Position numbers and translations under genes: made by a program
Shown: one piece after another, positions 9,799-28,430 of the stretch
How the letters are laid out: each line of letters opens with the position of its first letter
How positions within the stretch are numbered: position 1 is the stretch's first letter
Notes under the pieces: model-generated
The model's database searches: none
What the model was told of the DNA's origin: nothing
What the model saw: only the letters and a program-made list of their open reading frames with translations
Origin: Alternaria dauci
Taxonomy: Eukaryota > Ascomycota > Dothideomycetes > Pleosporales > Pleosporaceae
Direction of reading: 5' to 3'
Assembly: GCF_042100115.1 (NCBI RefSeq)
Contig: NC_091272.1
Span: forward strand, 5,146,001-5,210,000
Length of the DNA stretch: 64,000 bases

Positions 9799-10756
9799 AT
9801 GCCGACGCTGACGGCAAACGATGGTATTAGTCTGCATTATGAGACATATGGCGACCCGAACGCCGCTCCCTTGATCTTGGTGAGCGACCCGCCATTGAGC
9901 GCTTGTCTTCAGCGTGCCTGACTTCCATCGTTAGCTGCACGGCTTTACAGGTTCAGGGGCGGTCTTCAAGCGCAATGTAGCCACACTATCCCGGAGCTTC
10001 CATGTCGTCGTCCCCGATTTGCGTGGCCATGGCGAGTCTGACAAGCCGAAGGCGGGCTACCATGTTGCACGCCTAGCTATGGATTTGAAGAATTTGATTG
10101 ATTTCTTCGGTTTTAGCGATGGCACGATCAAAGCCATCGGCACAAGTCTAGGTGCCGCTATATTGTGGAGCTACAGCGAGTTGTTCACCACCCGCGCATT
10201 CTCGCACATGGTCTTCGTGGACCAAGCTCCACTACAGAACTACCTCGAAGACTGGGGCCCTGAATTTGGAAACCTAGGATGCAACTCCCTTGAAGCACTT
10301 CAAGGGATGCAGAAGTCGCTTGTCGAGAACCCCAAAGAGGCGCACATTGGTACCATCGCAGCGTGCTTGGGCTATCGATCGCATCCGCAGCCTGGCGGTC
10401 CTACATCAGATTCCGTGGAATGGAAAGAGGATGAAGAGTTCTTTCTCAGAGAGGCTTTGAAGGGAGATGGGTGGTGGTATGGTAAGCTGATGGCTGATCA
10501 TACGGCGAACGACTGGCGGCATCCTATCGCGCAGTCATTCGGGTCGCAAAGCGGTAATCGAACAAGAATACTGGTCGTAGCGAGTAGCCGAAGTGGATGC
10601 TTTCCCGCTGCAGGACCGTTGAAGGTAGTCGAATTAGTAAACGGAAGCGGAAAGGAAGAGCTCGCCAAGGGTGTGACGGTAACATGGGGAGGCCATTGGT
10701 GTTATTGGGAGAAGCCTGACACATTCAATGAGCTTGTTCTCGAATTTCTTGGATAG
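9799..10756 (+). CDS. Alpha/beta-hydrolase fold enzyme
   Basis: Exons are 9799-9879 and 9935-10756, with a 55-nt intron (GTGAGC...CGTTAG), giving 300 residues. Family hallmarks are present: the oxyanion segment LHGFTGSG near residue 28, the strand-turn DLRGHGES near residue 57, the nucleophile elbow GTSLGA (Ser about 98), and a C-terminal GGHW that can supply the catalytic His (about 281). The size is typical of small soluble epoxide-hydrolase- or haloperoxidase-like members. The substrate cannot be read from sequence. It lies 218 bp from the 3' end of the convergent FAD oxidoreductase gene. It lacks the shared palindrome upstream, so I do not count it as a firm member of the neighbouring cluster. 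Confidence 0.85.
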
Positions 10757-10973: not shown

Positions 10974-12827
10974 TCATAGCTGGGCCATGACCTGCTGGTG
11001 GCCATCATCCCATGAGGATGGAGCCGTAAGCACAGACATGACCCTCGCCGTATTGCAAAATGGCTTCTTCGCACTCTCTCCACAGCTTTGCTTGTACTCC
11101 TCCGCGAGTGCGCTGACGTTCGTATTTTGTAGTTTTTCAATCCTTTCAGCGGTGGTGCGGAACGGTTGAGGCAATGGAGGAAACGACGCGGCGATGAGGG
11201 GCTGGCTGTATTCGACACCGAGCGACTCCAAAACAAGAGGCGTGACATGAGCTGTTGAACCCAGCACGCGAGGCATACCTTCAAACGTTAGCTTATCTAT
11301 GGTTCTCAGCAAAGGAGTAGGCTTACCGTGTCCAGCGAATCCGGCGGCGATGAAATGGCCCGGCCGCTGTGGTACCGCACCAATAAATGGAAAATCGTCT
11401 GCAGTTTCGGTTTGGACTGCACTTTTGTCAGCCGACTGTACGTCAAAGTCACTCGCATGGCGCTATATTACTTCCAGTCCAGCAGCCGCCTTCGTTGACC
11501 TCCTTGCTGAGTTCCGCTGGAACTGTATCCGGCGAGCCTGTGACATCCGAGGGGCCCCAAGATTCGAAGAATGCAGCTACTCCGGCAATCTGTTGGTCCT
11601 CTTTATCATTAGGAAAGCAGTCTCCTGGCTTGTGAACAAGAAGTTGCCTTGCTCCGCCAATGATGATAGTGTTGTCGGGTGGTGGGAGCTGGAGATGGTA
11701 GTTCTGTCTTCGTCAGCGGGTCACCGATTGTAAAGGGAGCATCTGTAAGCCTTACGTTGACGACTGAATCCCAATGCTGGGCACCAGTATGCTTTATGAA
11801 CCCCGGCGGCGCTTTGATCGCGGCAATTGTCCCTCTGTCGGGCATTATGAGACTACTGAACTCGGGAAGAAGATGAGAAGCCCATCGGTTTGTCGTGTGG
11901 ACGACTGTTTTGGCACGAATGGTTCCGCGCTCAGTCGTGACTGTGATCCAGCCATCGGCGTCTCGCGCTGAAACATCGGTGACTGGGGTATGAGCTTGCA
12001 GATTGAGATTACCTTTCTGCAGAACGATGCGCAAGAGCGCATGCACGAATTTATATGGCCATCTGAGACGATGTTAGTAAGTTTGCGTGGAAGGAGTACA
12101 ATCGGAAGGGACCTACATTTGCCCTGCAGGATGCACCACTGCGGCAAGAGCACCCTTCATCTGCGTAAACTCCTCCGCGTCGTGTGCGTCTTCGATCATT
12201 CTGCATGTTTTAACGATCTCATGATCGTCGCCATGATCTCTCCGCATGTCTTCAAGTGCGCCCTTGAGCCTCGTCCAGGCCTCATCGGTCATGGCAGCAT
12301 CGAATGTTTCTCCGAACTTGAGACAGACCTCTTCCGTGATACCTTCTTCCTCTGTCAGATTCTTGAATGCTGGCAAATGAGCCATCTCATGTGCGATGAG
12401 CTCCATGGCACCATGGGCGCCAAACCGTTTTGACCATTTCGGGTAGCGGGAATAAGCATGCGGCCTTAATTGTCCTCCTGTACGTTGTTAGCTATCTCTT
12501 CAAGTGATGAGATGCAAGTGCCATCACCATTGCGTCCAGTGGCAGCTCCGCAAATATCACGAGCTTCTAGGAGAGTCACGTGAGGCTGCTTTGAAGCATT
12601 CTCTGTGTGCTAATCACTCGTCAGATTTAGTTGAGCGGACAAGTCATTTTGGTGCGGCGACATACTTTGTTGATCCAGTAAGCTGTCGACGCGCCGGCAT
12701 AACCACCGCCGATGATTGCCACATCGGTTTCCTCGGGTAACGTTTCGCTGGAGCGGAAGCTGCGCAACGGTGAGTTCGCAGCTTCAATCCAATAGGATTT
12801 GGTGGGGTTCACAATCGGCAAAACCAT
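10974..12827 (-). CDS. DAO-type FAD-dependent oxidoreductase, copy 1
   Basis: Seven exons: 12827-12666, 12609-12528, 12477-12117, 12062-11756, 11703-11472, 11416-11327 and 11278-10974. They sum to 1539 nt (512 residues), with introns of 48-56 nt. The dinucleotide-binding motif VAIIGGGYAGAST is at about residue 36-48. Other family motifs follow: EARDICGAATGRNGG (FAD contact), PYKFVHALLR, TTNRW, the DFPFIGAVP segment and a C-terminal GHFIAAGFAGHGMP. This is the pattern of glycine/D-amino-acid or amine oxidase-like flavoproteins (DAO fold), which oxidise an amine using FAD and oxygen. The substrate is unknown. There is no signal peptide, so a cytosolic or peroxisomal enzyme is expected. It is transcribed divergently from the HAD gene across a promoter with several CCGG palindromes, which implies shared regulation. 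Confidence 0.88.
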
Positions 12828-12946
12828 GTCGAGGAATTGAGAACAATAAATTACTTTCTACAGCAGAACAGAGAGCACGTTTCGCATGGCAATCCGCATC
12901 GTATACGTGTTCATATCTACAGTCCAACACCGCTCCTTCGAAGACC

Positions 12947-12967
12947 GACCGGGCACCTGGCCCGGTC
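12947..12967. promoter_or_regulatory. Spaced perfect inverted repeat GACCGGGC-N5-GCCCGGTC
   Basis: Two 8-bp arms in perfect inverted symmetry around ACCTG, 120 bp upstream of the FAD oxidoreductase 1 start codon. The arm repeats the GACCGGG half of the palindrome found in the other cluster promoters. Confidence 0.6.
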
Positions 12968-13151
12968 ATCGAGCTTATCACTTCGATCTAGGAAGTCAGA
13001 GCTTGAGAGACGATGACGCCGGTCCGGAGTCTTCTGAAATTATTGCCTATCGTCATCGTGCCAAGGTACCTATGTGTCACTGGCAGAACCGGGTAAGCGA
13101 TCCGGTCGTTATCGATAATGATATGGCCCGAGCGCGGCAGCAGTCACCTCA

Positions 13152-13164
13152 GACCGGGCCGGTC
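13152..13164. promoter_or_regulatory. Palindrome GACCGGGCCGGTC, copy 1
   Basis: Lies 175 bp upstream of the HAD start codon. The same 13-mer occurs at 19057-19069, and its core of 12 bases occurs in reverse at 21418. It is a candidate operator for a zinc-cluster regulator. Confidence 0.6.
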
Positions 13165-13338
13165 TTCTGTCATCCAATAGTACCCCACTCAGTATAGCAA
13201 AAGATCAGAACACCGGGTCTTTATGCAGGGGTCTGTTCTCCAGAGGTCTGTTACTCTTCGTGCCATGTCGACATATCTTGCATCAACCGCTGTCGAGCTC
13301 CTTGATTTTAGTCACCACACACCACCCCGAAAGCCAGG

Positions 13339-14067
13339 ATGACGCAGCCTTCCAAGCATGTTGTTTTCGACGTCGTCGGCACCTGCGTATCGTTCGACGC
13401 CTACTACGAACGCATAGACTCAGTCTTGGGGGCAAAACTTCGCGACCACTGCGTAACCGCGCAACACTTCGGGTACACCTGGCAGACAGCGGCTGAGCTG
13501 GAATTCACCTTCTTGTCCATCTCCGGAAGCTACAAGCCTTACAAGGACGTTCTGCGAGGACTCTTCTACCGTACCCTTAGCCTCTGTGGAATCGCCGACA
13601 CCCGGGCTATAGCCACCGAAGAGGAACGGGAAAAATGCATCGAAGGCTATTCCGCCTTACAACTGCGTCCCGGCTGTCAGGAGACATTCCAGTTGCTGCG
13701 CGACAACGGCTTTACCGTCTGGTGCTTCACCACCGGCGATGTGCAACGAGTAAGAGGCTATTTCGAGCGCGCCGGTGTAGACATGCCGCTGGAGAATTTT
13801 GTTAGTTGCGACAACACAGGTGTGGCCAAACCCGCTCTGCCGGCCTATCAAGCTGTATGGAATCAACTTGGGGCAAAGGATGTGAAATGGTTTGCTGCCG
13901 CACACATGTGGGATGTCGCAGCGGCCACGAAAGTCGGTTTCCGTGGAGCATGGAGCTCTGTGTACGAGAAGGAAGCTTGTCTCGACGTTTTCAGTGACGT
14001 GAAGCTGGAGGTGGTGGCTGGAGGTCTTATGGAAATGGCGCAGCAGATCGTAGAGAAGTCTCAATGA
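13339..14067 (+). CDS. HAD-superfamily hydrolase, haloacid dehalogenase type II-like
   Basis: A single exon of 242 residues starting at an ATG in MTQPSKHVVFD. HAD motifs in order: nucleophile motif FDVVGT (Asp11), motif II FTTGD, the motif III lysine in GVAKPALPAY, and motif IV AHMWDVAAA. The helical cap between motifs I and II (about residues 16-110) matches the length of 2-haloacid dehalogenases. These use the Asp to displace halide or hydrolyse phosphate. The true substrate is unknown, and many fungal members are not dehalogenases. It is divergent from FAD oxidoreductase 1 across a palindrome-rich promoter. It could act on a product of the flavoenzymes (inference). Confidence 0.85.
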   Translation: MTQPSKHVVFDVVGTCVSFDAYYERIDSVLGAKLRDHCVTAQHFGYTWQTAAELEFTFLSISGSYKPYKDVLRGLFYRTLSLCGIADTRAIATEEEREKCIEGYSALQLRPGCQETFQLLRDNGFTVWCFTTGDVQRVRGYFERAGVDMPLENFVSCDNTGVAKPALPAYQAVWNQLGAKDVKWFAAAHMWDVAAATKVGFRGAWSSVYEKEACLDVFSDVKLEVVAGGLMEMAQQIVEKSQ

Positions 14068-14413
14068 CATCAGTAAAGGATATTCATTTCCCACGCCTTT
14101 TCCTGTTTCTTCCCAGGATCTTGCCCGATGCTCGCCATTATCTCTTGTGAGGGCGCGGATTAGCAGATGTATCGCGTGTCCGTGATAAGCCGGGGCTCCT
14201 ACTAACCGGTTACGGGCAAGCTTTGTGCGGAGCCCCTGCAGGAAGCTGGACGGCTCCAACGTCGCTGCATTGCGCGGCATTTAGCTATCTTATCGCTCGC
14301 GCTTCGGTAGGTGGGTGTCTTTGACAGCTGCGAATCTACGACGTATGCTCAGAAGACTTCCGCAAACCCGACCTTTTCAGTTTATACCTAGTCCTGTTTG
14401 TTCAATTCGAGCT
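14068..14413. other. Intergenic region upstream of the zinc-cluster regulator
   Basis: 346 bp between the HAD stop and the regulator start. I see no copy of the GACCGGGCCGGT element here, so the regulator may not autoregulate through it. Nothing else is recognisable. Confidence 0.5.
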
Positions 14414-17053
14414 ATGGATGTCGAGCCTCCAAGACCCACTAAGAGGCGTCATATAGCGGCCGAAGAGCGACAGCGAGCAGTTCGCGCGTAAGACCCACCA
14501 CTGTCTCGCCGAAAAACGCGAGGCAGAGTCTTGGCTGACAAACATCGCATAGGTGTGATGAGTGTCGCCGTCTCAAAGAAAAGTGCGAGGATGGGACACC
14601 ATGCAGGCGCTGTCGCCATCTGCGCCGACCCTGTAGATACAATGTTGCGCCTGCTGCAGTAGACAAGCGTGGACCGGGCCTTCCTGATACGCTCAATGAG
14701 CTCATGGATCGCATGCGATGTATGGAATTCATAGTGAAACACCATCATCCGAATCTCGCCCTGGATATCGTTTCTCTACAACGTATATGCGATTCCTTGT
14801 CTTCGCCCACTCCACCACGCGACCAGAACGAGATAATACCCGAGTCCATTGAGATGTCAGCAAATGCCCAAGTCTCTGACAGCCCTGATATTGGAGATGA
14901 GGATTGTACCATCGACCGCGTAGACGGCACGACAGTGCGTAAGTGCTTGTTAAATCTCTTTGCTATTCCTCAGGCACACTGACGAGACATTTTGTCGTCG
15001 TGCAGATTACTCAGGCGAGTTCTCCCATTGGAACTTTTCCATGCACATCAAACGCAATATAGACGAACTTATGGCCAAAGCCAACGTGCAGGTACGTCAA
15101 TCTAGCCTAGTCTTTTCCTGTTTGCTCACATCCCTATCAGAATCTAGAAAATGTAACGCGAGTACCAGATTTTATTCGCGTCGGCGAAGCAGATCCAGCC
15201 TCGACATCCATTGCTGATATCCTTGCTGTTGTGCCACCCCGTCCGGTTGCTACTTTCTTGACCAATGTCTTCTTCAATCATGCCGCCAGCGTCTACTACT
15301 ATGTGGATCGACGCTGGTTTGACGACACGCTAGACAAAATATACACCCAAACCGTCTCGCTACGCTCCAAAGACGTTACTGCGATATGTGTGGTACTGAT
15401 GGTGCTGGCAGTTGGAACCCAATTCGTCCATTTAGAATCGCCCGACCGTCACAAGACCCACAGTGCGGGCGTTGCAACGGACTCCGAAGTTCAGAGTAGT
15501 TGGGAGCTCGAGATCGGATCCGGCTTTTATCGTCAAGTGGCAAAGCTTCTTTCGGAAGTCATCCACGCTGGCTCACTACTCAGCGTCCAAGTACTCTTGC
15601 TCCTCGGTCTATATTCCTTACCAATTGATGCATCTGGACTAAGCTACATCTACCTAAACTTGGCCATCAAGGTAGCCATACAAAACGGGATGCACCGAAA
15701 AGTCTCGCGTAATGTTCTCGATCCGAGAACCAAAGAGATCAGGCGTCGCATTTGGTGGACAGTGTACTGCATGGAAAGGTTCGTCGATTTCTAACTCTCT
15801 GATACCACATCGTCCTGGTTCTCACAGATGTGACTTATTAGGAAGATCGGTATATACCATGGCCGCCCGATATCCATAATACAGTCCGATATCGATGCAG
15901 ATCTACCTCGGAGTTCTGAAGCAGACTCCATGAATTATGACTCTTTCGATCCTCAAGGTCTCTTAGAATCAATCAAACTCACACGGCAGGCTGAAGCATT
16001 CCTTCACGAGATGTAAGTCCAGATCAAGACTCTCTAGGAACATGGCAATAGGAAACAACCAACTGACTATTTTTGGCCAGCTCATGTCTCCGAACATGTA
16101 CGAAGACTGAAGTCGGGACGATTTTGAACCGTATCAAACATATGAAGGCAGAACTGCGAGGGCCCTGGTCGCCTCCCCGTGGGGGTGCATTATCGCCAAC
16201 CGCGAACCACCAAGCAGAGCTACCGAAATCCCGCGCATTGGTTCATTCGAGACTAGAGTGCTGCTTATTGCACATGTTCATCGGACGACCCTTCATCCTC
16301 GCGCATCGTCATGCGCGGACCAGGGCACATTCCAAGAACGCTAATGCCGCATCCCCAGAAGGACGCCGGAGGAAAGCATCCGAGTCGCACTCACAGTGGG
16401 ACTTCTTGGTCCAGGACTGTGTTGCGGCCGCGAAGGAAGTTATCAGCATATGTCAAATCATGCAGACGGGCGACATGGGCCTTGCAAAGTCGTCCTATGC
16501 TGAGTATAGTTCCTGTCGCGCGTCCCTGCTCGTCTTGATCGCCTATAGCATATGCTACCGTACAAACGAGTTCGCAAACACTCTACAAGTGGGTCTTCAA
16601 GCGATTAGAGAGATGGCCTCGGCGGGCGATTCCGCGCGTTCAGAAGTATCCCTCCTAGAGACACTGGAAGCGGCGCTGCATCGACTACACGTGTTCAACC
16701 CATTACCTAGTCAACCTGCTGGTATGGAAGCCAAAAATCCGGCTGAAGAGGGCTACAACGGCTTTCTAAATTGGTACAAGAAAGCAGAATGGTCCGCGAA
16801 TCCTCGTCCTGCGCCTTTAGCATCTGAACATGCGAGTGTACAAACCGCAACAGCACGAGACCCAAGGATGACACCAAACAGAGCCGATGCAACAGTGGAT
16901 AGTGTGCCAAGCGATGCATCTCTCGATGGCTATCCGTTCGATTTTGATCTACTTAACTCGGATGGAAGCGTGGCATTCTTCACCTCGAACTTTGATGATC
17001 ATGGTAACACAGAGAGGGACTTCTTTGAGAGCCTTTCATGGCTACCGAAATGA
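14414..17053 (+). CDS. Zn2Cys6 fungal-specific transcription factor
   Basis: Six exons: 14414-14487, 14553-14938, 15006-15091, 15141-15778, 15842-16012 and 16081-17053. They sum to 2328 nt (775 residues). The DNA-binding cluster is C26-x2-C29-x6-C36-x5-C42-x2-C45-x6-C52 with a basic linker, preceded by a Lys/Arg-rich stretch. The middle homology region carries the usual landmarks YSGEFSHWNF, the RRIWWTVYCMER segment and GRPISI. These identify a Fungal_trans regulatory domain. The C-terminus is acidic and aromatic (DGYPFDFDLLNSDGSVAFF), as expected for activation. It is nuclear and binds CGG-type repeats. Its position among genes that share CCGG palindromes makes it the likely pathway-specific regulator (inference). 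Confidence 0.9.
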
Positions 17054-17206
17054 TGTTCTGCGTACGCTAAAATCGACAATATATGAGCGATGAAAGGCAT
17101 CGGGTTAACTCTCTTCGCCAACAGAGGGCATGTGAAAGTTGGTGGACGAATCTTCGCATCGCAAAAGTGAGCAATCCAGGTCCACACTTGTCGCTGTATT
17201 TCATGA

Positions 17207-18818
17207 TCACAACCGTGCTTGAGCAGGCTGGCTTTCCGCAATCTGTTGCCACGTCTTGAGAGACACATGTTCTCTTTGCTGGTACCATCTGCTTCTGGTG
17301 ATGCGATATGGTAAAGGGAGGTCCACATCCTCTGCATCGCCCGTAATGACCATAGAAGCGATGGCTTTTGCACAGAAGAAGATCTGCGGCATACCGTGCC
17401 CGCTGAATCCTGCGCACATATACTGGCCGGGCTTCCCGCAAACTGGCCCGACGTAAGGGAAGCCGTCGTTGGAATAGCCCATGACTAACACGGAACAATA
17501 TTAGTCAGTTCTGAAAAATTCAACCAAGGGCGCTGGTGCAGATATGGCACTTACTACCTGTCCAGAGGTCTTCTGTGCGGGCACCACTATTCTCCCACCC
17601 GCGAAAATGCCGTTGCATGTAACCGTCAAAATAATGCCGTGCGCCATCCATTAGTTTGCTGTCGTCGGACACATCAAACCATTCGTCCAAGTCTTTGTAG
17701 TAGTCGCGCCTTCCGCCGCCAACGATAATACTACCGTCCGGTCGAGGAATCATATAGTCGTACTCATAGTCCGAGAACCGCATCATGTAGCTATCCGTCA
17801 TCTTTGGTGCGTTCTCGCCCGCCAAGCGCGCTACTATGCCTCTCACTGGGACGACTTTGTCCTTCATCTCTGGTACGAGAGCAGACGTGTAACCGTTCGT
17901 GGCATAGACGACAGTGCTGGTCTGGACGGAGCCACGAGATGTGTTGACGACCCAGCGATGATCTTTTGCACCTTCATTGACTGCCGAGACTGACGTTACT
18001 GACGTATGTGTTTGCAAGTTAACACCCATAGATACTGCTTTTTCTAGCAAGTGCGCCACAAGTCGGTAGGGCCACAGTCTAGCGGCATGATATGTGTGGC
18101 AAGACTTTGCACCCCAAACGCCAGAAACCTATCCGCTTTGTCAAATCTCTTCGAAGAAATGGTTCAATGAAGCATGTCAACTCCAAACATTACATACCTC
18201 TTCTGCTTTGCTTCCCGAAGTAAATTTGATCTCTTTTGCAGTTGAGATATCCGCTTTAGCGATTTTCGCAATGTCAGCTTGGATCTTATCGCGGCCGGCG
18301 TCGTAAAAGCAAACATCTGTAACCCTTGTCTCCTCAAAGTCGCAGTCACAATGTTCACGCCGAACAAGTTCCTTGATTGCGTCGACCTGGCGGGCTTCGA
18401 ACGTAGCGACGTGCTCCGCGACCGCTTTGCCATGTGTATCTAGTACGCTCGCCGCTCTTGACAAAGGATCTGGTTTCAAATGACCGCCTTCACTCTTATC
18501 ATCAGTACTGACGAGATCTAACTTAAATCTCGAGGGCATATTATACGTACCGTTACGTCCGGTGGCGCCAGAGCAGGCCTCACGTGCCTCAAGGATAAGT
18601 ATTGATGGAATTGGGCGATCACGAAGCACACATTCCTCGGCTATGTGATGCGCAATCGATGCTCCAGCGTATCCCGCCCCAATGATTACGACATCGGCCC
18701 GCGTGGGAAGATGTTCAGTGCTGCGATGGTTGTCGATGGGCCCGACTTGTTTCCTCCAATAAGAGGGAACAGCATCCGCCACTGGGAAAGGTTTGACGGT
18801 GGGACTAGGAAAGGACAT
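17207..18818 (-). CDS. DAO-type FAD-dependent oxidoreductase, copy 2
   Basis: Four exons: 18818-18551, 18487-18198, 18128-17558 and 17484-17207. They sum to 1407 nt (468 residues), with introns of 63-73 nt. The FAD-binding motif VVIIGAGYAGASIA is near residue 43. Other motifs are EAREACSGATGRNGGHLKP, RLWPYRLVAHLLEKA, YATNGYTSALVPEM, MGYSNDGFPYVGPV and GQYMCAGFSGHGMPQ. The enzyme is clearly homologous to copy 1 but has fewer introns and low identity, so the pair is an old duplication or two independent recruitments. Expected chemistry is FAD- and oxygen-dependent amine or amino-acid oxidation; the substrate is unknown. It is convergent with the zinc-cluster regulator (153 bp between stops). 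A GACCGGGCCGGTC palindrome sits 239 bp upstream. Confidence 0.88.
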
Positions 18819-19505
18819 GTTAGAGAATTGAGGTTCGAGTCGATTTCATGTCTTAGCGGTAGTTTTACGAAGATGTTCTAAGCGCAAGGCGGGCTATGTA
18901 GGTACTCACGCTTAGTCATTGAAAGGGCAGGTGGGCTTCTACTGTACCCATCCCGGAAACTCGCGTACTTTGATCGGGTAGATAAAACAAGCAAGCCTGG
19001 AATCTTGGTCCTTGGCTTCAAGTGGCTGCGCAAGGCGGTGATCGTCAGGCAACTACGACCGGGCCGGTCTCCGGACCGGCCCTCGATAAGGATCCAGTTG
19101 ACTTTCCTACCCCGCAAGTAAACACCCGTTTAGTGCAGCAGGGTCCGGCATAGAAGCCTTGCATTTGTGTAACATCATTTGCAGTGTTGGAAAAGCCCTT
19201 CGACCTTATTTTTGGTTGACAAAGCTGAATCTGATGCGAGATGATCGAGCAATTCTATTAGAAAATACCCATAGCAATGGCTGTTCGCGTGCCAAAGAGT
19301 AGTGATGCAAACACGTATAGGAAGAGTGTTAGATTATCAGCATACAATACCACAATGAATGCACAACTTGTGTTACAACAGATGTATTGAACGACTTGAT
19401 AATTGCTACCTACGGCGGGGCCTTGAAGACGCTTTCCCAAATTTCAGCTCGCGACACAAGCGTCGATAATCCTTCTGTTGGAAACCATCGCGCACGACAC
19501 GAACT
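18819..19505. other. Intergenic region upstream of FAD oxidoreductase 2
   Basis: 687 bp holding the FAD oxidoreductase 2 promoter (with the palindrome at 19057) and the 3' flank of the MFS gene. No coding exon was seen. Confidence 0.55.
19057..19069. promoter_or_regulatory. Palindrome GACCGGGCCGGTC, copy 2
   Basis: Identical 13-mer to that at 13152-13164. It is followed two bases later by the related CCGGACCGGCCC (19071-19082), making a double element 239-263 bp upstream of FAD oxidoreductase 2. Confidence 0.6.
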
Positions 19506-21288
19506 TTATTCGGTAACAACATTACTCAACGGCTTCCTGGGCATCCTTGTGATCAACATGACCATGCTAGGCACAGTAAGAACCAGCAAACCACAGTTCA
19601 CGTAGATTGGAACCACAGGACCAATGCCACTCGCGGAGCTCAGACCATAGGAAACTGCCTGCCCCGCCGTCTCAAACGCGCGAAACAAGCCCCCCACGCG
19701 TGCAGAATCGCTCATGTCGTTGGAGAATGTGCCAAGAATCCAGTATAGTGTCAATTGCGTCCAGTAGCCGCTCACGAAGATGATAAGGTACGGCACGTAT
19801 GCCCTTGCCCATCTACCGGTTTCTCTGTTGTTGAAGTCAGTCTCAGTTACATTAGGGCATGCTTCACTGCGGGATAACTCACGATCCGTAATCTAGCGCC
19901 GATGAATCGCCGAGGTAGTGGTACTCAAAAGCGGTCCAGATGAAACAAGCAGTTTGTGGCAAGATCCACAGCAAGAATGCAGCCCATGCCTTGGGCCGTT
20001 GGGACCACCGCTGGCTGTCTAGAAGTTTTCCGAATACAACGACCGAAGGAATGGTGATGGCAGCTGTACTAGTCAGCATGTGGTCTGCGGTGCGCAGGGT
20101 CTATACATACGGATAAGAAAAGATGAAAGAGCGCGTGCGCGGACCGAGAAATGTAGCGAGAGATAGGTACCCATCGTTCCTCCGTAAAAGAAAGAATAGA
20201 ACGAGGGTAGAAAGATTAACCAGATCTGGCAACATGTTAGTGCTTTCCAAAGTTTGAAGACTGATTCATTGCTTACCTTGTTGCTTTGTAGATAACTCCA
20301 TAGAGCCACGAATTCTTGCTTCCAAGTGACCCTTCCCGACATGGCGACCTTGCTGCCATCGCGACGACGCACCCGGCGTGTAGAAGACAATAACAGTGCC
20401 CAAAGAACTCCAGTGCATTCTGTCTTCAGTCAGTAACTGTGCACTCAGAACATATGCCTACGTATCTTTGACGTACCGAATCCAACAAAGACCAGGTATG
20501 TCGACCATGCAATACCTCCAGCAGAAGCTCTGTCCGAATTCGTGGAAAAGTTTATCGCGCCACCGATCAAGCTTCCGGAGCTTCGCATAGCCGACCAGAT
20601 ACCTGTCAAAGGTTATTACAATGATCATCCTGCGAGTTGGACGCATATACTTACCAAGGTATAGCCCCTTTTCTTCTGGCCTTGGGTAGCATAACATGGC
20701 CGTCGTTTCACCGACGTAAAGAAATCCGCCCGCTAGGCCGTTAATAACCTGGCCTCATCAGTATGTTTCCCTTGTATACGGATGAGTGATGATCGTACAC
20801 TGGCAGCTAAGAGGTACCAGTCGACGCTGAACTTAGCGTTTACATAGTACGCAGATCCTTGGAGGGGCATTGTAAGAGCCGCAATGAAGCACGCCCATTT
20901 GATTCCTATCCTGTTGATGATAGGACCTCCAAGGATGGTACTGATGAAGCCCATGGCGTAGCTCAACGAATTTGCAAGATTCGCTAGCCATGGTGTAGAC
21001 AGACCGCCTCCTCCTAGGTTAGATATAGCGTCACCCATAGCAGGGCCAACAAGTGAAAGCCTTGGTCATGTTCAGCATCCTGATGGTAGTCTCTGATGGG
21101 GTTACTTACGCTCCGAACAGCACCATCTGGAACAGCACGCTCCGATATAAAGTCGACCATTTCCAAGATCGCAGAAAGTCGTAATCAGTTACTTCCTCCT
21201 GCGATCCTATCGCAATGTCCTCACCACCGTCATTCTCCGTGTCCTTCACTTTGGCGTCTTTGGTGTCTTTAGTTTGCGAGTAATCCAT
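19506..21288 (-). CDS. Unc93-like major facilitator superfamily transporter
   Basis: Eight exons: 21288-21110, 21060-20799, 20748-20655, 20602-20477, 20419-20277, 20225-20111, 20063-19883 and 19824-19506. They sum to 1419 nt (472 residues). All introns are 47-58 nt. The cytosolic N-terminus is charged. About 11-12 hydrophobic segments follow. Landmarks of the fungal Unc93 (DUF895) family are LSLVGPAMGDAISNLGGGG, GFLYVGETTAML, SSGSLIGGAINF, YGGTMGTYLSLHFSVRARALSS and FETAGQAVSYGL. It is a plasma- or organelle-membrane transporter of unknown substrate. It carries the shared palindrome 130 bp upstream of its start, so it probably imports a substrate or exports a product for the flavoenzyme/HAD cluster (inference). 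Confidence 0.88.
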
Positions 21289-22494
21289 GGCAAAACTTTT
21301 ACTGAACACCGTTCATGAAACGCTTCCATTTTATGCAGGACTCTTGAGTCTCAGAGAATATCGGCCGGCAAGGTGATTGGGAGATGGTGCCCCTTGTTTG
21401 CTCCAGATAAGCATTGCACCGGCCCGGTCTGTAGCGCGACTGATTAGACATGGTGTTAACGGGCGACTCGTGGAGTGCTTATCGAGCATGGATGTAATCG
21501 CGAAAACATGTGGGTTCAACCGGGTGGAGATTCTTATCTATATCCACGAGAAGGGGAGATAAACGATAGATGTCTCAAAGTTCAGCCTCAGCGATCAAAA
21601 GACAGGCTCACTTCCTTGTCCGTCCACGTGTGCGTCTGAAAACCGCATTATGTCGCTGTCTCGGTCTGTCCTATAACTATCGCTTCGAGCGCTAGCCCAT
21701 GAGCTCCGGCAATGTTATCGCTGCCAACCTAGGACGTTGTCCATGCTCCGTTTGTGTCGCTAAGCCTTTCTTGTGAGCATAGGGTAGTAGCCGTGCTCGA
21801 CTGTCGCGCTCTCTTCAAGGTGCTCCGGGCCTTTACAGACCTGGATTCCTGTCGCAATTAGCATGTGGATAGGCACGAGTCCGAACGATGTAACGGTGCT
21901 GTTAAGCTCTAAGAAGGCTAGCCGATGTCTTTGTCCAAGCTGAAAGGTAGCTGCACGCAACACAAGCGTTGTTGGAAGTGACGGGAAGCGCCGGTGTTGG
22001 AGTTGCGGGGTGCGGAGGTGTCTCCACTCTTCTAACCACGCACACCAATCAAACCACTGGTATTACACCCCTTTCTTCCGATGGACGGGAAGGAGAGGCA
22101 TTCAACTTTCTAGCCCACGACCGCGAATATGCGCACATCTGAGTAACAGGTCTCTAGAGGAGAAAATGCCCGTTAAAAGTCCTCTGTGGCTATATTGTTG
22201 GGGTGCCAAAGTGGCAGAGTTGCGTTTTCGGAAGCAGTAAATTGACCTCGGAACGGCACCGCAGCTTCCGAAAGATCGCGAGCAAGGGCTGATATTCAAC
22301 GTCCCAAGGTCGTATATACCTAGCATATCTAATAGTTTTACTGTCGATCAAAAGCATACAAAACCATCAGTTTGAATCAGCTCGGGAAGCGCAAGAGGAC
22401 ATAAGTGGCAGAACTGCATAAGCATATCGACGCGCTCATACCTGGACGCATAGTGTGTCGCGATGAGCTGGCACTTCAAGCTCTTTTCTCCGCG
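21289..22494. other. Intergenic region, MFS promoter and DUF6536 3' flank
   Basis: About 1.2 kb. The only recognisable element is the palindrome at 21418-21430. Nothing coding was seen in the rest. Confidence 0.55.
21418..21430. promoter_or_regulatory. Palindrome ACCGGCCCGGTCT, copy 3 (reverse orientation)
   Basis: Its reverse complement, AGACCGGGCCGGT, matches the copy at 13151-13163 exactly. It lies 130 bp upstream of the MFS transporter start codon. Confidence 0.6.
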
Positions 22495-25400
22495 CTATTT
22501 CCCACCTACATCTTTCTCTCCCCCTCCAACCCCAGCATATAACTCGTTTGGCACAATCTTGCCCACCTCTTCCGCGCTCAGGCCCGCATGCCTAAATCGC
22601 TGTCCCTCACCCAAATCACCCCATTGGATCCCATTATCAGGAAACCCTTCCAATGCCGTCGTCGACGCCATAATCACTCTCACGCTGCCAAACATCTGCG
22701 GAATAAACCCTTCACGCTTGTATGTAAAAGCCCACCAGCACACGGCCGTCATCAACAAGATCAAGACTGTTGCGAACCACAATGGATATGCAGCCCACTT
22801 GAGTATATATTTCGAGTGCTCGACGTGTCTTCCGTCGTTGTATTCGATCCAAATAGCTTCATGCGCCTGCAAAGCCTCTCCAAGCATCCAGTGCGTGAGG
22901 GTGGAGTAGGCCATAATGGGAAAGAGGATCTTCTTGGGCAGTTGCAGCAAGTACGTTTCGTTAAACGAGGTGCCGGAGACGAGGGTTGTGCGGATGCGTT
23001 TGCGGCGGTACTCGAGTTTACCCCAGTCGGATTCTTGAGATATGAGTGTGATATTGTAGATCATCATTAGATAGAGGAGCGAGTATATGAACTGTGCAGC
23101 GTTGGAGCTATAGGACGTGAGCGTGAGCGTGGTATTTGGAGAAGATGATAGGGAGTATGAACTTACATGGCGAATGCGATGAACTCGTGAGACATGTTGT
23201 CTGGAGGCAAGGAGGTGAGTGTCAGAGAGCGGTTGAAGCCTCCAAAGCCGCCGGATATGGTCTCGAAATACTCCGTTGAGCTCATGTCGCATTCTTCGTA
23301 CTTGGGAGCATTTGGTCTCAGCTGTCGACAAAATTTATTCCGAGTGGAAGCGTCCGAGCCCAAGCTGTTTGTGCATCTCAGCAGGGGAAATGTAACTACT
23401 GATGAGGCAACTTACATTACAGCAGCCGTCAGCGAACCGGTGAGAAGTGCAAGGCTACAGAACATCATAATCAACATTTGCGTCAACGCTGTGTTGCCGA
23501 GGTTGCTGATCAAACTCTTTTTGATCTTAGTTGCGATGGTAGGCTGCGGCAGATTTGCAAATTTGTCCTCCGTGTTCCATTTCTTGCATTTCTGGCAGTG
23601 GCCGATCTCATCTATATCCGTGTCAACGGCGGATATTCGCTAGATTAGTGGAGACTTGTCCTTACCACCAGTTTTGGATTCTTCATGGTTGAAGCAATGC
23701 TTGTGGCATGTATGTGAATAAAGTCGGCGGAAGCTGTCATTAGCGTTGACCATACATTCCCTTCTCATCGTTAGTGGAGGAGCCGGCAATGGGTAAGGAT
23801 ATCACAGACCCTTGCAACCTCAGCGCTGGGTCAGCCGCAGACGCAACGATCACATCGCCGAATGTCAGACAATGCTGTTTTACCTTGCCACGAGCTAGCA
23901 AGTTGACGGCACACATATATACCGCTTTTATGACCAAACAGCTCATGAGCACGATGGCAGCACTCATACGGACGTTGAGACGGCATTTCGATGCCATTGG
24001 CTCGTGTAGCGTGCATATGACATCATATCCCATGGAACAATTGCCGGTTTTATAGACCGGATAGGAGGAAAGAGTTGTCGAAAGTTCTGTTGATTCAAGA
24101 GCATCGATCGCTCCAGACTCGACTTTCTGCAGGTGTTGTGTACAATTTTCTTTCACATAGTGAACCCTCATCTTGCGCCAGGACAAGTCGAAAACTTCCT
24201 GGTTTTGACTAAAGACATCATCATTATATGGCGACATGGTAACGAAACGGTGCGGATAATGCGGAGTTCCCGAGCCTACGTTGAGAACGCAATCAGCAAG
24301 TGTCCGAATGTGTGCGCATGCATTCCAATCGTGTAGTGATACTCAGCATGCGTCTAGAGTGTACGAGACGGCTACGAACACTACCTATATAGGCATACGA
24401 CTCGGGAACTGACTTACTGCTACCAGTTAGCATTGGTCACAATTCATGGTTTCGTCGTTAGCTTCATACCGGAATGCGCTCCAACATGGGAAAGATGTAT
24501 CACCGCTCAGATAATTCTTTGCACCCAGAGTGGCGATGAAGTTGGTGCTTATCTCTAGCCTATCCAGCGGGTTGAATTCGATAACTTCGGGCAACTCCTG
24601 GGTATACGAAGGGCCAATGAGGGAATTTGCAAGAAAATGTACTGGCATCGATGTGAAGATTAAAAGAAACCATGCGGCCCATGCGCGCTTTCTGCCTTTT
24701 TCCTTATGCCGAATGTTCAACGGTGAATTTGTTCCGACTCTTGAGTCCCCAAACTTTGACAACGCATATTTCAAGTCGCTGATCTTGAGAGAAGTGACAA
24801 TCTGCTGATATGTGTTGCTCATTCCTAGAACCATGGTCGCGCATACGTTGATAATGAGGAGGCACGCTGTGTTAGTGTACGTGACCTTCTTGCAGGAGTC
24901 TGGGGTTCCGCCCACGGAGGTGGAACCTAAATTCGTGCGGTTGACAACATGCTTGATGTTACAGGCAATCAAAACGATCATACCGAGCGCGAGAACGCTC
25001 ATGGTCGCGGCCATCGTACGGAATGACCGATCGCTCAACAGCTGATCTTTCCAGATGCCGCGACCAACTCGTGCAGGTTCAACATCGGCCGCAGCATGTC
25101 TTCTGATGGAGCCTCGGAGATATTTTGGGAGTGGTCGCCTGCGGAAGAGATCCTTTAATTTTTTCGTGCTGCTTCCAGTCGCGGTCGATTGGAAGCTGTC
25201 GAAACTTTTTCTGCTAGAGTCGTCGGGGCCACTGTGTTGATGAATGGGGTCGTATTGGGAAAAGGGCGGCGGAGGATCAGACAGGGCGTACTGCGAAGAA
25301 GAGAGTCGCCGTAATGGTATCTGCGAATCTTGCACATGGAGTAGCCCAAGTGTATCGCGGAATTCGTCGTTGACAGACAATCTTGGATCGTATCAGCATA

Positions 25401-26739: not shown

Positions 26740-28430
26740 TCACACCTGAGAAATCTTGAACCCTCCCGGCAGTAGTCTCTGGTAGACGCCAAAGGGATCG
26801 TACTTCTTTGCGACCTTCTGCATGAAGGCCACATTGTCAACACCGTAAGCTGAAAGAGGATCCTGGTCTTTGTCGGCATAGTTCAGGTAGAGATATTCCA
26901 CCGCAGTACCCTTCTCCGTAGCAAACTTCTGAATTCCATCGGTCAACATCTTGCCCAGACTAATGAATAACTCATCATCCTTAGCCTCAGACCAGAGCAG
27001 GTATGACTGATACATGATGAAGTTCTCGCTGTAGCGCTCCATGCCGAGCACATTACCGCCCCTGGCTGTACTGTTCGCGGTATAGCTTGTGGCAAAAATC
27101 TGGTGCAAGCACGAAATGCGCCACTGGCCAGAAGCCTTGGCTTGTAGCTCCGTAATGACGATGTTGTAGAGACGCGCTGTCTCTTGGAGAGTCTCAAGAT
27201 CAATCTTGAATGAGAGAGTGCGAAATTGGACCCTGGCTTCTCGCGTTAGCCACAGCTCTACACTAAATATAGCTGGGAAATGTACCGGCTGGCTGTGTCA
27301 CTGCCAAATTCGGCAGCAACCGCACTCATTGGTTGAGTCTTGGTCGAATCGCTGAGGGTGTTGTTTACGGCAAGGAACTCGCTGTATGCAGCTGGGCGAA
27401 CCACAGGCTTAGTGTAATCGAAGGCGGCTCTTACGACATCCACGGAACTGGCTGTTGAGTATCCTTGGAACAGGATCAAAGCAGCATTTGGGTCTCTGTT
27501 CGGGTCGAGACCAAAATTGACAAGCGACCTAAAATGTCGATTGACTGTGGATGCGGGCCAAGAAACGATGCCGCCCCAAAGGTTTTCGTTCTCGAAGGTC
27601 TCCATGTCGTATCGTGTCACGATACCGAAGTTGTTGTTACCTAGAGATTGTTGTACGAAGTCAGTCCTTTTCTCGCGTACAATTAGTACAAGAATATTAC
27701 GTACCACCTTTGAGAGCGGTGAAAAGATCGGCATTCATCTGCTTATTGGCATCCACGATGCGACCATCGGCCAGGACGACCTGGAAATTGATGACGTTGT
27801 CGCAGGACAGTCCAACGCGAGGCGCGTAGTGAGATATTCCACCACCAAGCAGAAAGCCGCCAACGCCGACAGTACTTCCTCGGCCTCCAGCTACCATACG
27901 TCCCAACGGCTCCAGAGCTGCGTAAACAGAGCCCCATCTCGCAGCTGGCAAAATGCTTGCTATCTTGGAATCAGCATCGTAGGTAGTCCCATTCATGTGC
28001 AGCATGTCGATCGTGACTCCATCGTCGATGTTGTTGGCACCAGGAATTGGAGTATGGCCACCGGATCGTACGGCAAACTGACAGTTCTTCAACAGACTGG
28101 CGGCTGCAAGAACTTTCACTGTCATAGAAACCTCCTCGGCAGTTGTTGGTTGCACAATACAGTTGGGTGTCAGTCTGCTCTTTCCATCGAAATAGGAAGC
28201 AAGACTAGCATTATATGCGTTCTGACCAGGGTAGGTTACGCGCTTAGCTACTGGACTTGAGGTCAGAGCTGTGCACTGGAGAAAGTCAGAATAGCAACAC
28301 AAGATGACTTTGACCTTACACAATAACCAGGAGAGAGGGGATGGACCGTAGGTACGCTCCGAACCTCACTCTGAGCGCACGTTACGCCGAGCAGGGCCGC
28401 AACGAGCAAGGTAGAGCTCAGACAGAACAT
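26740..28430 (-). CDS. Secreted berberine-bridge-type (BBE) FAD oxidoreductase, copy 1
   Basis: Four exons: 28430-28320, 28275-27705, 27640-27286 and 27232-26740. They sum to 1530 nt (509 residues). A signal peptide is evident (MFCLSSTLLVAALLGVTCAQ). The FAD-binding type-4 domain carries both residues used for bicovalent flavin attachment: the His in FAVRSGGH and the Cys in VGLSCDNVI. Also present are AGGRGSTVGVGGFLLGGGIS and GGNNNFGIVT. The C-terminal BBE element is intact (YLNYADKD ... KKYDPFGVYQRLLPGGFKI). Such enzymes oxidise sugars, alcohols or alkaloid/polyketide intermediates with oxygen, often in secondary metabolism or cell-wall sugar oxidation. The substrate is unknown. No biosynthetic core enzyme lies nearby. 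Confidence 0.9.

What the first reader, a model, noticed from the sequence alone, without database searches (positions are those of the whole stretch)
12828..21430. A GACCGGGCCGGT palindrome shared by three promoter regions marks a candidate undescribed regulon
The 13-mer GACCGGGCCGGTC occurs exactly at 13152-13164 and 19057-19069. A 12-base core match, in reverse orientation, is at 21418-21430. Each lies 130-240 bp upstream of a start codon: HAD (with FAD oxidoreductase 1 sharing the divergent promoter), FAD oxidoreductase 2 and the MFS transporter. A specific 12-mer is expected well under once in 64 kb, so three copies all placed in promoters of one block is strongly non-random. CGG/CCG inverted repeats are the established target type of Zn2Cys6 factors, and one is encoded at 14414-17053.
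Basis: partly seen in the sequence, partly recalled or inferred. Interest (0 to 1): 0.75.

Follow-up and report, generated by a model that had tools for sequence, protein, structure and literature searches.

The report
PrnA-type operators in a fungal cluster
In an Alternaria-like fungus, a small group of neighbouring metabolic genes shares a DNA tag that matches the known target of PrnA, a proline-sensing switch protein, and the group encodes a relative of that switch, so it is probably a self-contained switch-and-genes unit whose trigger is unknown.

Summary
In the 34.9-Mb Alternaria-like genome GACCGGGCCGGTC occurs exactly twice, both times here. Its core, CCGG-N-CCGG, occurs 193 times genome-wide. 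Five lie here, the densest 9 kb among the 191 mapped places. All five are 135-331 bp from a start codon of FAD1, HAD, FAD2 or MFS. Plain CGG-N-CCG is not enriched.

CCGG-N-CCGG is the published atypical target of Aspergillus PrnA, the proline-pathway activator (passages). The Zn2Cys6 gene between these promoters is this genome's best match to a PrnA-annotated protein. It forms a clade apart from annotated Eurotiales and Sordariomycete PrnA and occurs with HAD and FAD2 orthologues in other fungi. Neither proline dehydrogenase gene has the site within 41 kb.

Best reading: a PrnA-like activator controls a predicted amine or imino-acid catabolism cluster through PrnA-type operators. Binding, activation and inducer are inferred. 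The operator type is described; the regulon was not found in print.

The parts
13152..13164 (+). GACCGGGCCGGTC, PrnA-type operator (CCGG-G-CCGG) in the FAD1-HAD divergent promoter
13019..13027 (.). CCGG-T-CCGG, second operator core in the FAD1-HAD promoter
12947..12967 (.). GACCGG-N9-CCGGTC inverted repeat nearest to the FAD1 start; accessory site, inferred
13088..13107 (.). ACCGG-N9-CCGGTC, second N9 pair in the same promoter; accessory site, inferred
19057..19069 (+). GACCGGGCCGGTC, operator in the FAD2 promoter
19071..19079 (.). CCGG-A-CCGG, adjacent second operator core in the FAD2 promoter
21417..21429 (-). GACCGGGCCGGTG, operator (CCGG-N-CCGG) in the MFS promoter
14414..17053 (+). PrnA-like Zn2Cys6 regulator, 775 aa, 6 exons
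   Evidence: model; Zn_clus and Fungal_trans; relatives; tree
10974..12827 (-). FAD1, DAO-family FAD oxidoreductase, 509 aa, 7 exons; end worked out from the model length
   Evidence: model; Pfam
13339..14067 (+). HAD hydrolase, 242 aa, intronless
   Evidence: model
17207..18818 (-). FAD2, DAO-family FAD oxidoreductase, 469 aa, 4 exons; end worked out from the model length
   Evidence: model
19506..21288 (-). MFS transporter, 472 aa, 8 exons; end worked out from the model length
   Evidence: model; Pfam

Best explanation
The palindromes are operators of the cluster's own PrnA-like Zn2Cys6 activator. A dimer binds CCGG-N-CCGG in the promoters of FAD1, HAD, FAD2 and MFS and switches them on together when a pathway metabolite, probably an amine or imino acid, acts on the regulator. 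Shown here: the sites, their genome-wide concentration, their promoter placement, the regulator's family and its DNA-binding region, and the joint occurrence of regulator, HAD and FAD2 in other fungi. Inferred: binding, activation, the inducer, and the role of the enzymes in breaking down an amine or imino acid.
For: CCGG-N-CCGG, a motif taken from the literature on PrnA (passages), singles out this place: 193 places genome-wide, 5 here; no other 9-kb stretch of the 191 mapped places holds more than 2, and 0 of 5000 random placements put 5 in 9 kb. All 5 window copies are in the three promoter regions; 0 of the 7 sites lie in an open frame of 150 aa or more, against 14 of 22 other near-13-mer places. 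CGGNCCG alone is at chance. The regulator is the genome's best match to PrnA-annotated P0324 (E 1e-43; next locus 1e-10), and its tail plus zinc cluster, the part on which inverted-repeat recognition is said to depend, is 29 of 43 identical to P0324. Regulator, HAD and FAD2 records share a contig length in 7 organisms, and 5 of 120 listed FAD2 relatives are DAO-HAD fusions.
Against: No binding or expression data. Promoters of orthologous clusters could not be read. The PrnA yardsticks are annotated by name only. The zinc cluster is no closer to annotated PrnA than to a third clade whose sites I do not know (F. oxysporum P0279 30 of 38, A. flavus P0274 25 of 37 identical). PrnA's second site type, CCGG-6/7N-CCGG, is absent from the window. 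The regulator's own promoter has no CCGG-N-CCGG. 188 other CCGG-N-CCGG places exist in the genome; most were not examined.
Confidence: 0.72

Rival explanations
1. The sites belong to another DNA-binding protein, for instance a different zinc-cluster factor reading CGG triplets, and the cluster's own regulator binds elsewhere.
For: Many zinc-cluster genes exist in the genome (40 matches listed, most weak). N9 pairs, not described for PrnA in the passages read, are also concentrated in the FAD1-HAD promoter.
Against: CGGNCCG alone is not enriched; the enriched form is the PrnA form, and a PrnA relative lies between the sites.
Confidence: 0.12
2. The regulator is this fungus's working PrnA: it senses proline and governs proline use as well as this cluster.
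For: Best match in the genome to a PrnA-annotated protein; relatives in Pyrenophora are named PrnA (P0262, P0268).
Against: It falls in a clade of 16 (100/100) apart from annotated PrnA of Eurotiales and Sordariomycetes. The two Pro_dh genes lie on other contigs, and the nearest CCGG-N-CCGG is 42 kb away from each. In 1.8 and 1.5 kb taken upstream of them the CCGGs (4 and 3) are not at N1, N6 or N7 spacing.
Confidence: 0.1
3. Chance, base composition or copied promoter DNA.
For: The 13-mer was picked after looking at the window. HAD and FAD2 sites sit in a 25-nt stretch 84% alike. FAD1 and FAD2 are relatives.
Against: CCGG-N-CCGG comes from the literature, not from the window, and still singles out this place. 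Beyond about 25 nt the flanks differ, and the MFS copy is in the other orientation.
Confidence: 0.04

Closest known systems
PrnA and the prn (proline utilisation) regulon of Aspergillus nidulans
   Same: Zn2Cys6 activator family; CCGG-N-CCGG sites in divergent and single promoters of a small catabolic cluster
   Different: Different clade; the cluster holds DAO oxidases, an HAD hydrolase and an MFS protein instead of proline genes; no N6/N7 direct repeats in the window
Gal4/Ppr1/Put3-type Zn2Cys6 regulators
   Same: Same zinc-cluster fold; weak sequence matches to GAL4 and PPR1 chains, E 0.02-0.08
   Different: Their spaced CGG triplets are not what is enriched here; spacings of these proteins are recalled
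AzhA, azetidine-2-carboxylate hydrolase of A. nidulans
   Same: Intronless HAD protein of about 241 aa (PMC8016842 section 5); its regulator was not identified in the parts read
   Different: Orthology not settled: the genome has two more HAD relatives, 49% and 35%; AZC use in A. nidulans does not need prnA

Membership tests
PrnA | Zn2Cys6 domain with fungal-specific TF domain | tested here: met
   PF00172 and PF04082 above cut-off
PrnA | Conserved N-terminal tail plus zinc cluster | tested here: met
   29 of 43 identical to P0324; but a third clade is as close in the zinc cluster
PrnA | CCGG-N-CCGG sites in target promoters | tested here: met
   5 in the three promoter regions; binding not tested
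[quoted passage not shown]
   0 in the window
PrnA | Tree position among annotated PrnA proteins | tested here: not met
   Separate clade, 100/100, 44 rows; filed as PrnA-like, not PrnA
PrnA | Control of proline catabolism genes | tested here: not met
   No CCGG-N-CCGG within 41 kb of either Pro_dh gene; expression not testable
PrnA | Inducer-dependent DNA binding | not testable with these tools
   needs experiment
Gal4-type CGG-triplet regulators | Enrichment of the plain CGG-N-CCG core | tested here: not met
   11 seen, 12.9 expected; only spacer 1 tested in this way
Haloacid dehalogenase type II (enzyme) | NCBIfam equivalog cut-off and active-site residues of 2-haloacid dehalogenases | tested here: not met
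   80.6 bits against a cut-off of 125.4. In the alignment to 2no4 the WRQ arginine is Q, SNG is TTG and SSN is AAH; that these residues matter is recalled
AzhA (AZC hydrolase) | Orthology to A. nidulans AN12472 | tested here: inconclusive
   Sequence of AzhA not at hand; three HAD relatives in the genome

The most novel reading that the evidence does not exclude
A paralogue of the proline activator PrnA has kept PrnA's unusual DNA code but moved to another signal: a toxic or unusual plant imino acid such as azetidine-2-carboxylate. It drives a detoxification and assimilation cluster in which the HAD enzyme opens the ring, the two flavoenzymes oxidise the amine product and the MFS protein moves substrate or product. 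It could point to the kind of regulator that is still missing for AZC induction.
Probability: 0.13. Interest if true: 0.65.

Novelty: new member of a known kind. Interest (0 to 1): 0.47.

Why it matters
PrnA's recognition of CCGG-N-CCGG was described as unlike that of its relatives. Here a sister subfamily sits among dense CCGG-N-CCGG sites in a different cluster, which suggests that this recognition mode is wider than PrnA's proline role. It gives a compact testable unit (one regulator, three promoter regions, five to seven sites), and a way to find the substrate of a conserved DAO-HAD cluster of fungi by asking what induces it.

Tried and rejected
Plain CGG-N-CCG as the motif: at chance in the window. 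Proline catabolism as the regulon: no CCGG-N-CCGG near either Pro_dh gene. FAD2 paralogues elsewhere as further targets: of five paralogue places checked the nearest site is 3.9 kb away, the others 8 to 53 kb. Extra regulon members among the 22 other near-13-mer places: 14 of 22 lie inside open frames of 150 aa or more; of 10 open frames scanned at 5 of the 22 places, 6 had Pfam matches (PHP, AIG2-like, PH-like, cellulase, MFS, PNRC motif), with no clear link to this cluster. Relatives of HAD in viral contigs and in prokaryote genomes: none (the second scan used strict patterns). AzhA orthology: not resolvable here. A structure model of FAD2 was not obtained. Paper searches: searches gave 0 papers; one search gave 2, 1, 1, 2, 13 (10 listed), 1, 19 (12 listed); none of the listed titles is on such a regulon. 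PMC4267943 was searched for prnA passages and not used.

Full report
What was checked. The 13-mer GACCGGGCCGGTC is at 13152-13164 and 19057-19069, and a one-mismatch copy lies on the minus strand at 21417-21429; 14 nt around the third copy (21418-21431) are an exact inverted copy of 13150-13163. The window is part of a 34.9-Mb genome in 10 contigs. The nearest listed FAD2 homologue is from Alternaria rosae, 93%, so the host is Alternaria or close to it. Genome-wide the exact 13-mer occurs only at these two places; the reversed control pattern has 2 forward and 2 reverse matches. Allowing one mismatch to GACCGGSCCGGTC there are 25 places (control 36), three of them here. GACCGGN{0,20}CCGGTC occurs at 18 places (control 108), three of them here.

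Genes. Spliced models without internal stops could be written for all five genes: FAD1 (DAO family, minus), HAD (plus, intronless), a Zn2Cys6 protein with Fungal_trans domain (plus), FAD2 (DAO family, minus) and an MFS transporter (minus). An alpha/beta hydrolase frame (9935-10753) lies beyond FAD1; none of the five CCGG-N-CCGG copies of the window lies near it.

The regulator's family. Homologues of the Zn2Cys6 protein include several named PrnA or L-proline catabolism regulator (P0262, P0268, P0304, P0324, P0330, 120 of 297 listed). The passage read in PMC5983819 says that PrnA of A. [quoted passage not shown] A table row in PMC12941744 (passage) lists CCGG-N-CCGG for PrnA. The primary paper (Gomez 2002) was seen only as a citation. 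GACCGGGCCGGTC contains exactly CCGG-G-CCGG. The window's regulator is the best match in its genome to P0324 (E 1e-43, next locus 1e-10), and its tail plus zinc cluster is 29 of 43 identical to P0324. Against a specific PrnA link, members of a third clade are as close in the zinc cluster (P0279 30 of 38, P0274 25 of 37). In a 44-row tree it falls in a clade of 16 (Dothideomycetes plus Apiospora and Geosmithia), 100/100, apart from the clade of 19 that holds P0304, P0324 and P0330; A. niger has one member in that clade and one in the third clade. The root is a midpoint for drawing only. I therefore call it PrnA-like, not PrnA.

Test with a motif not taken from the window. CCGGNCCGG occurs at 193 places genome-wide (reversed control 404). 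Five are in the window (0.84 expected by shuffling, 0 of 100 shuffles reach five). They start at 13019, 13154, 19059, 19071 and 21419, all in the FAD1-HAD, FAD2 and MFS promoters, 135-331 bp from a start codon. With 191 of 193 places mapped (two on contig C10 were not listed), no other 9-kb stretch holds more than two; 5000 random uniform placements of 193 sites never put more than four in 9 kb. CGGNCCG, the Gal4-type core alone, is at chance (11 seen, 12.9 expected). CCGG itself is 19 in 1517 bp of these promoters against 4.4 expected at the window rate. Two CCGG-N9-CCGG pairs (222 in the genome, control 423) share the FAD1-HAD promoter. The 40 comparison loci (248 kb) were mostly fetched because they carry related sites, so they are not a random background; they hold 9 CCGG-N-CCGG. 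N6 and N7 spacings, PrnA's second site type, are absent from the window, and the regulator's own promoter holds no CCGG-N-CCGG.

Conservation. Regulator plus one partner is seen in A. rosae (J4E91_010739/010740), Paraphoma chrysanthemicola, Parastagonospora nodorum (HBI56_071880/071890), Curvularia clavata (yc1106_04110/04112), Apiospora saccharicola (PG988_007685/007686) and Apiospora marii. HAD and FAD2 relatives share a contig length without a listed regulator in Didymosphaeria variabile, Phaeosphaeriaceae sp. PMI808, Bipolaris maydis, Pyrenophora teres, Aspergillus cavernicola and A. varians. For Bipolaris, Pyrenophora teres, Exserohilum turcicum and Apiospora arundinis the listed regulator and partner records differ in contig length; representatives may come from different assemblies, so these say nothing either way. 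Only 120 rows of each list were visible (of 2694, 490 and 297). Five of 120 FAD2 relatives are DAO-HAD fusions, which ties the two enzymes to one pathway.

What the cluster does. DAO-type flavoenzymes oxidise amines and amino acids (established knowledge). The best sequence match in the PDB for both FAD1 and FAD2 is 1y56_B, labelled sarcosine oxidase there; a passage of PMC1949818 refers to entry 1Y56 as an L-proline dehydrogenase-type oxidoreductase. These are weak, general matches; FAD1 also matches glycine oxidases and dimethylglycine dehydrogenases. The HAD scores below the type-II dehalogenase cut-off, and residues around the dehalogenase active site differ in the alignment, so dehalogenation is doubtful. 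A. nidulans AzhA, an azetidine-2-carboxylate hydrolase, is also an intronless HAD of 241 aa (PMC8016842: abstract, sections 5 and 9, part 1 of 2 of section 10, and passages read). But AZC use in A. nidulans does not need prnA, and the genome here has two further HAD relatives (49% and 35%). The substrate stays open; an amine or imino acid is the likeliest class, AZC one candidate.

Limits. Nothing here shows binding or expression. The PrnA yardsticks are names given by annotation. The two Pro_dh genes carry no CCGG-N-CCGG within 41 kb, and N6/N7 pairs are absent from the 1.8 and 1.5 kb read beside them, so the regulator probably does not control proline oxidation through these sites; control through other sites was not examined. 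Further targets among the 188 other genome sites are not excluded.

Verdict. The pattern is real and far from chance. It is best explained as a set of PrnA-type operators for the cluster's own PrnA-like regulator. The operator kind is known; the regulon, its inducer and its pathway were not found described in the ten paper searches made.

Noticed in passing
genome contig C1: 4960, 6972833, 6997843, 7023118, 7048034: The 17-mer CCGGGGTAGATGACCGG (either strand) recurs near both ends of contig C1, four times at the right end about 25 kb apart, which suggests long subtelomeric repeats.
   Followed up: no
L028 around 3001 (genome C6:2519450-2519462): A perfect spacer-1 palindrome GACCGGACCGGTC lies outside long open frames, between an MFS gene frame and a cellulase (GH5) frame; a possible further target.
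   Followed up: partly
relatives P0069, P0092, P0097, P0099, P0110: DAO and HAD domains are fused in one protein in Thozetella and several Aspergillus species.
   Followed up: partly
whole genome: CCGG pairs are rarer than their reversed control patterns (193 against 404; 222 against 423), which suggests a general shortage of CCGG or of CG-rich words of this kind.
   Followed up: no
window 27700-28365 minus; 305-2278 plus; 24430-25392 minus: Neighbouring frames carry FAD_binding_4, DUF2433 with a fungal RRM, and DUF6536.
   Followed up: no
genome C10:1364991-1365581 and C5:2264458-2265141: Two further HAD relatives, 49% and 35% identical to the cluster's HAD; either could be the AzhA counterpart.
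   Followed up: no
genome contig C9:1887436-1888080: A weak PrnA-like regulator match (29%) lies about 5.5 kb from the Pro_dh gene of C9, perhaps the local proline regulator.
   Followed up: no
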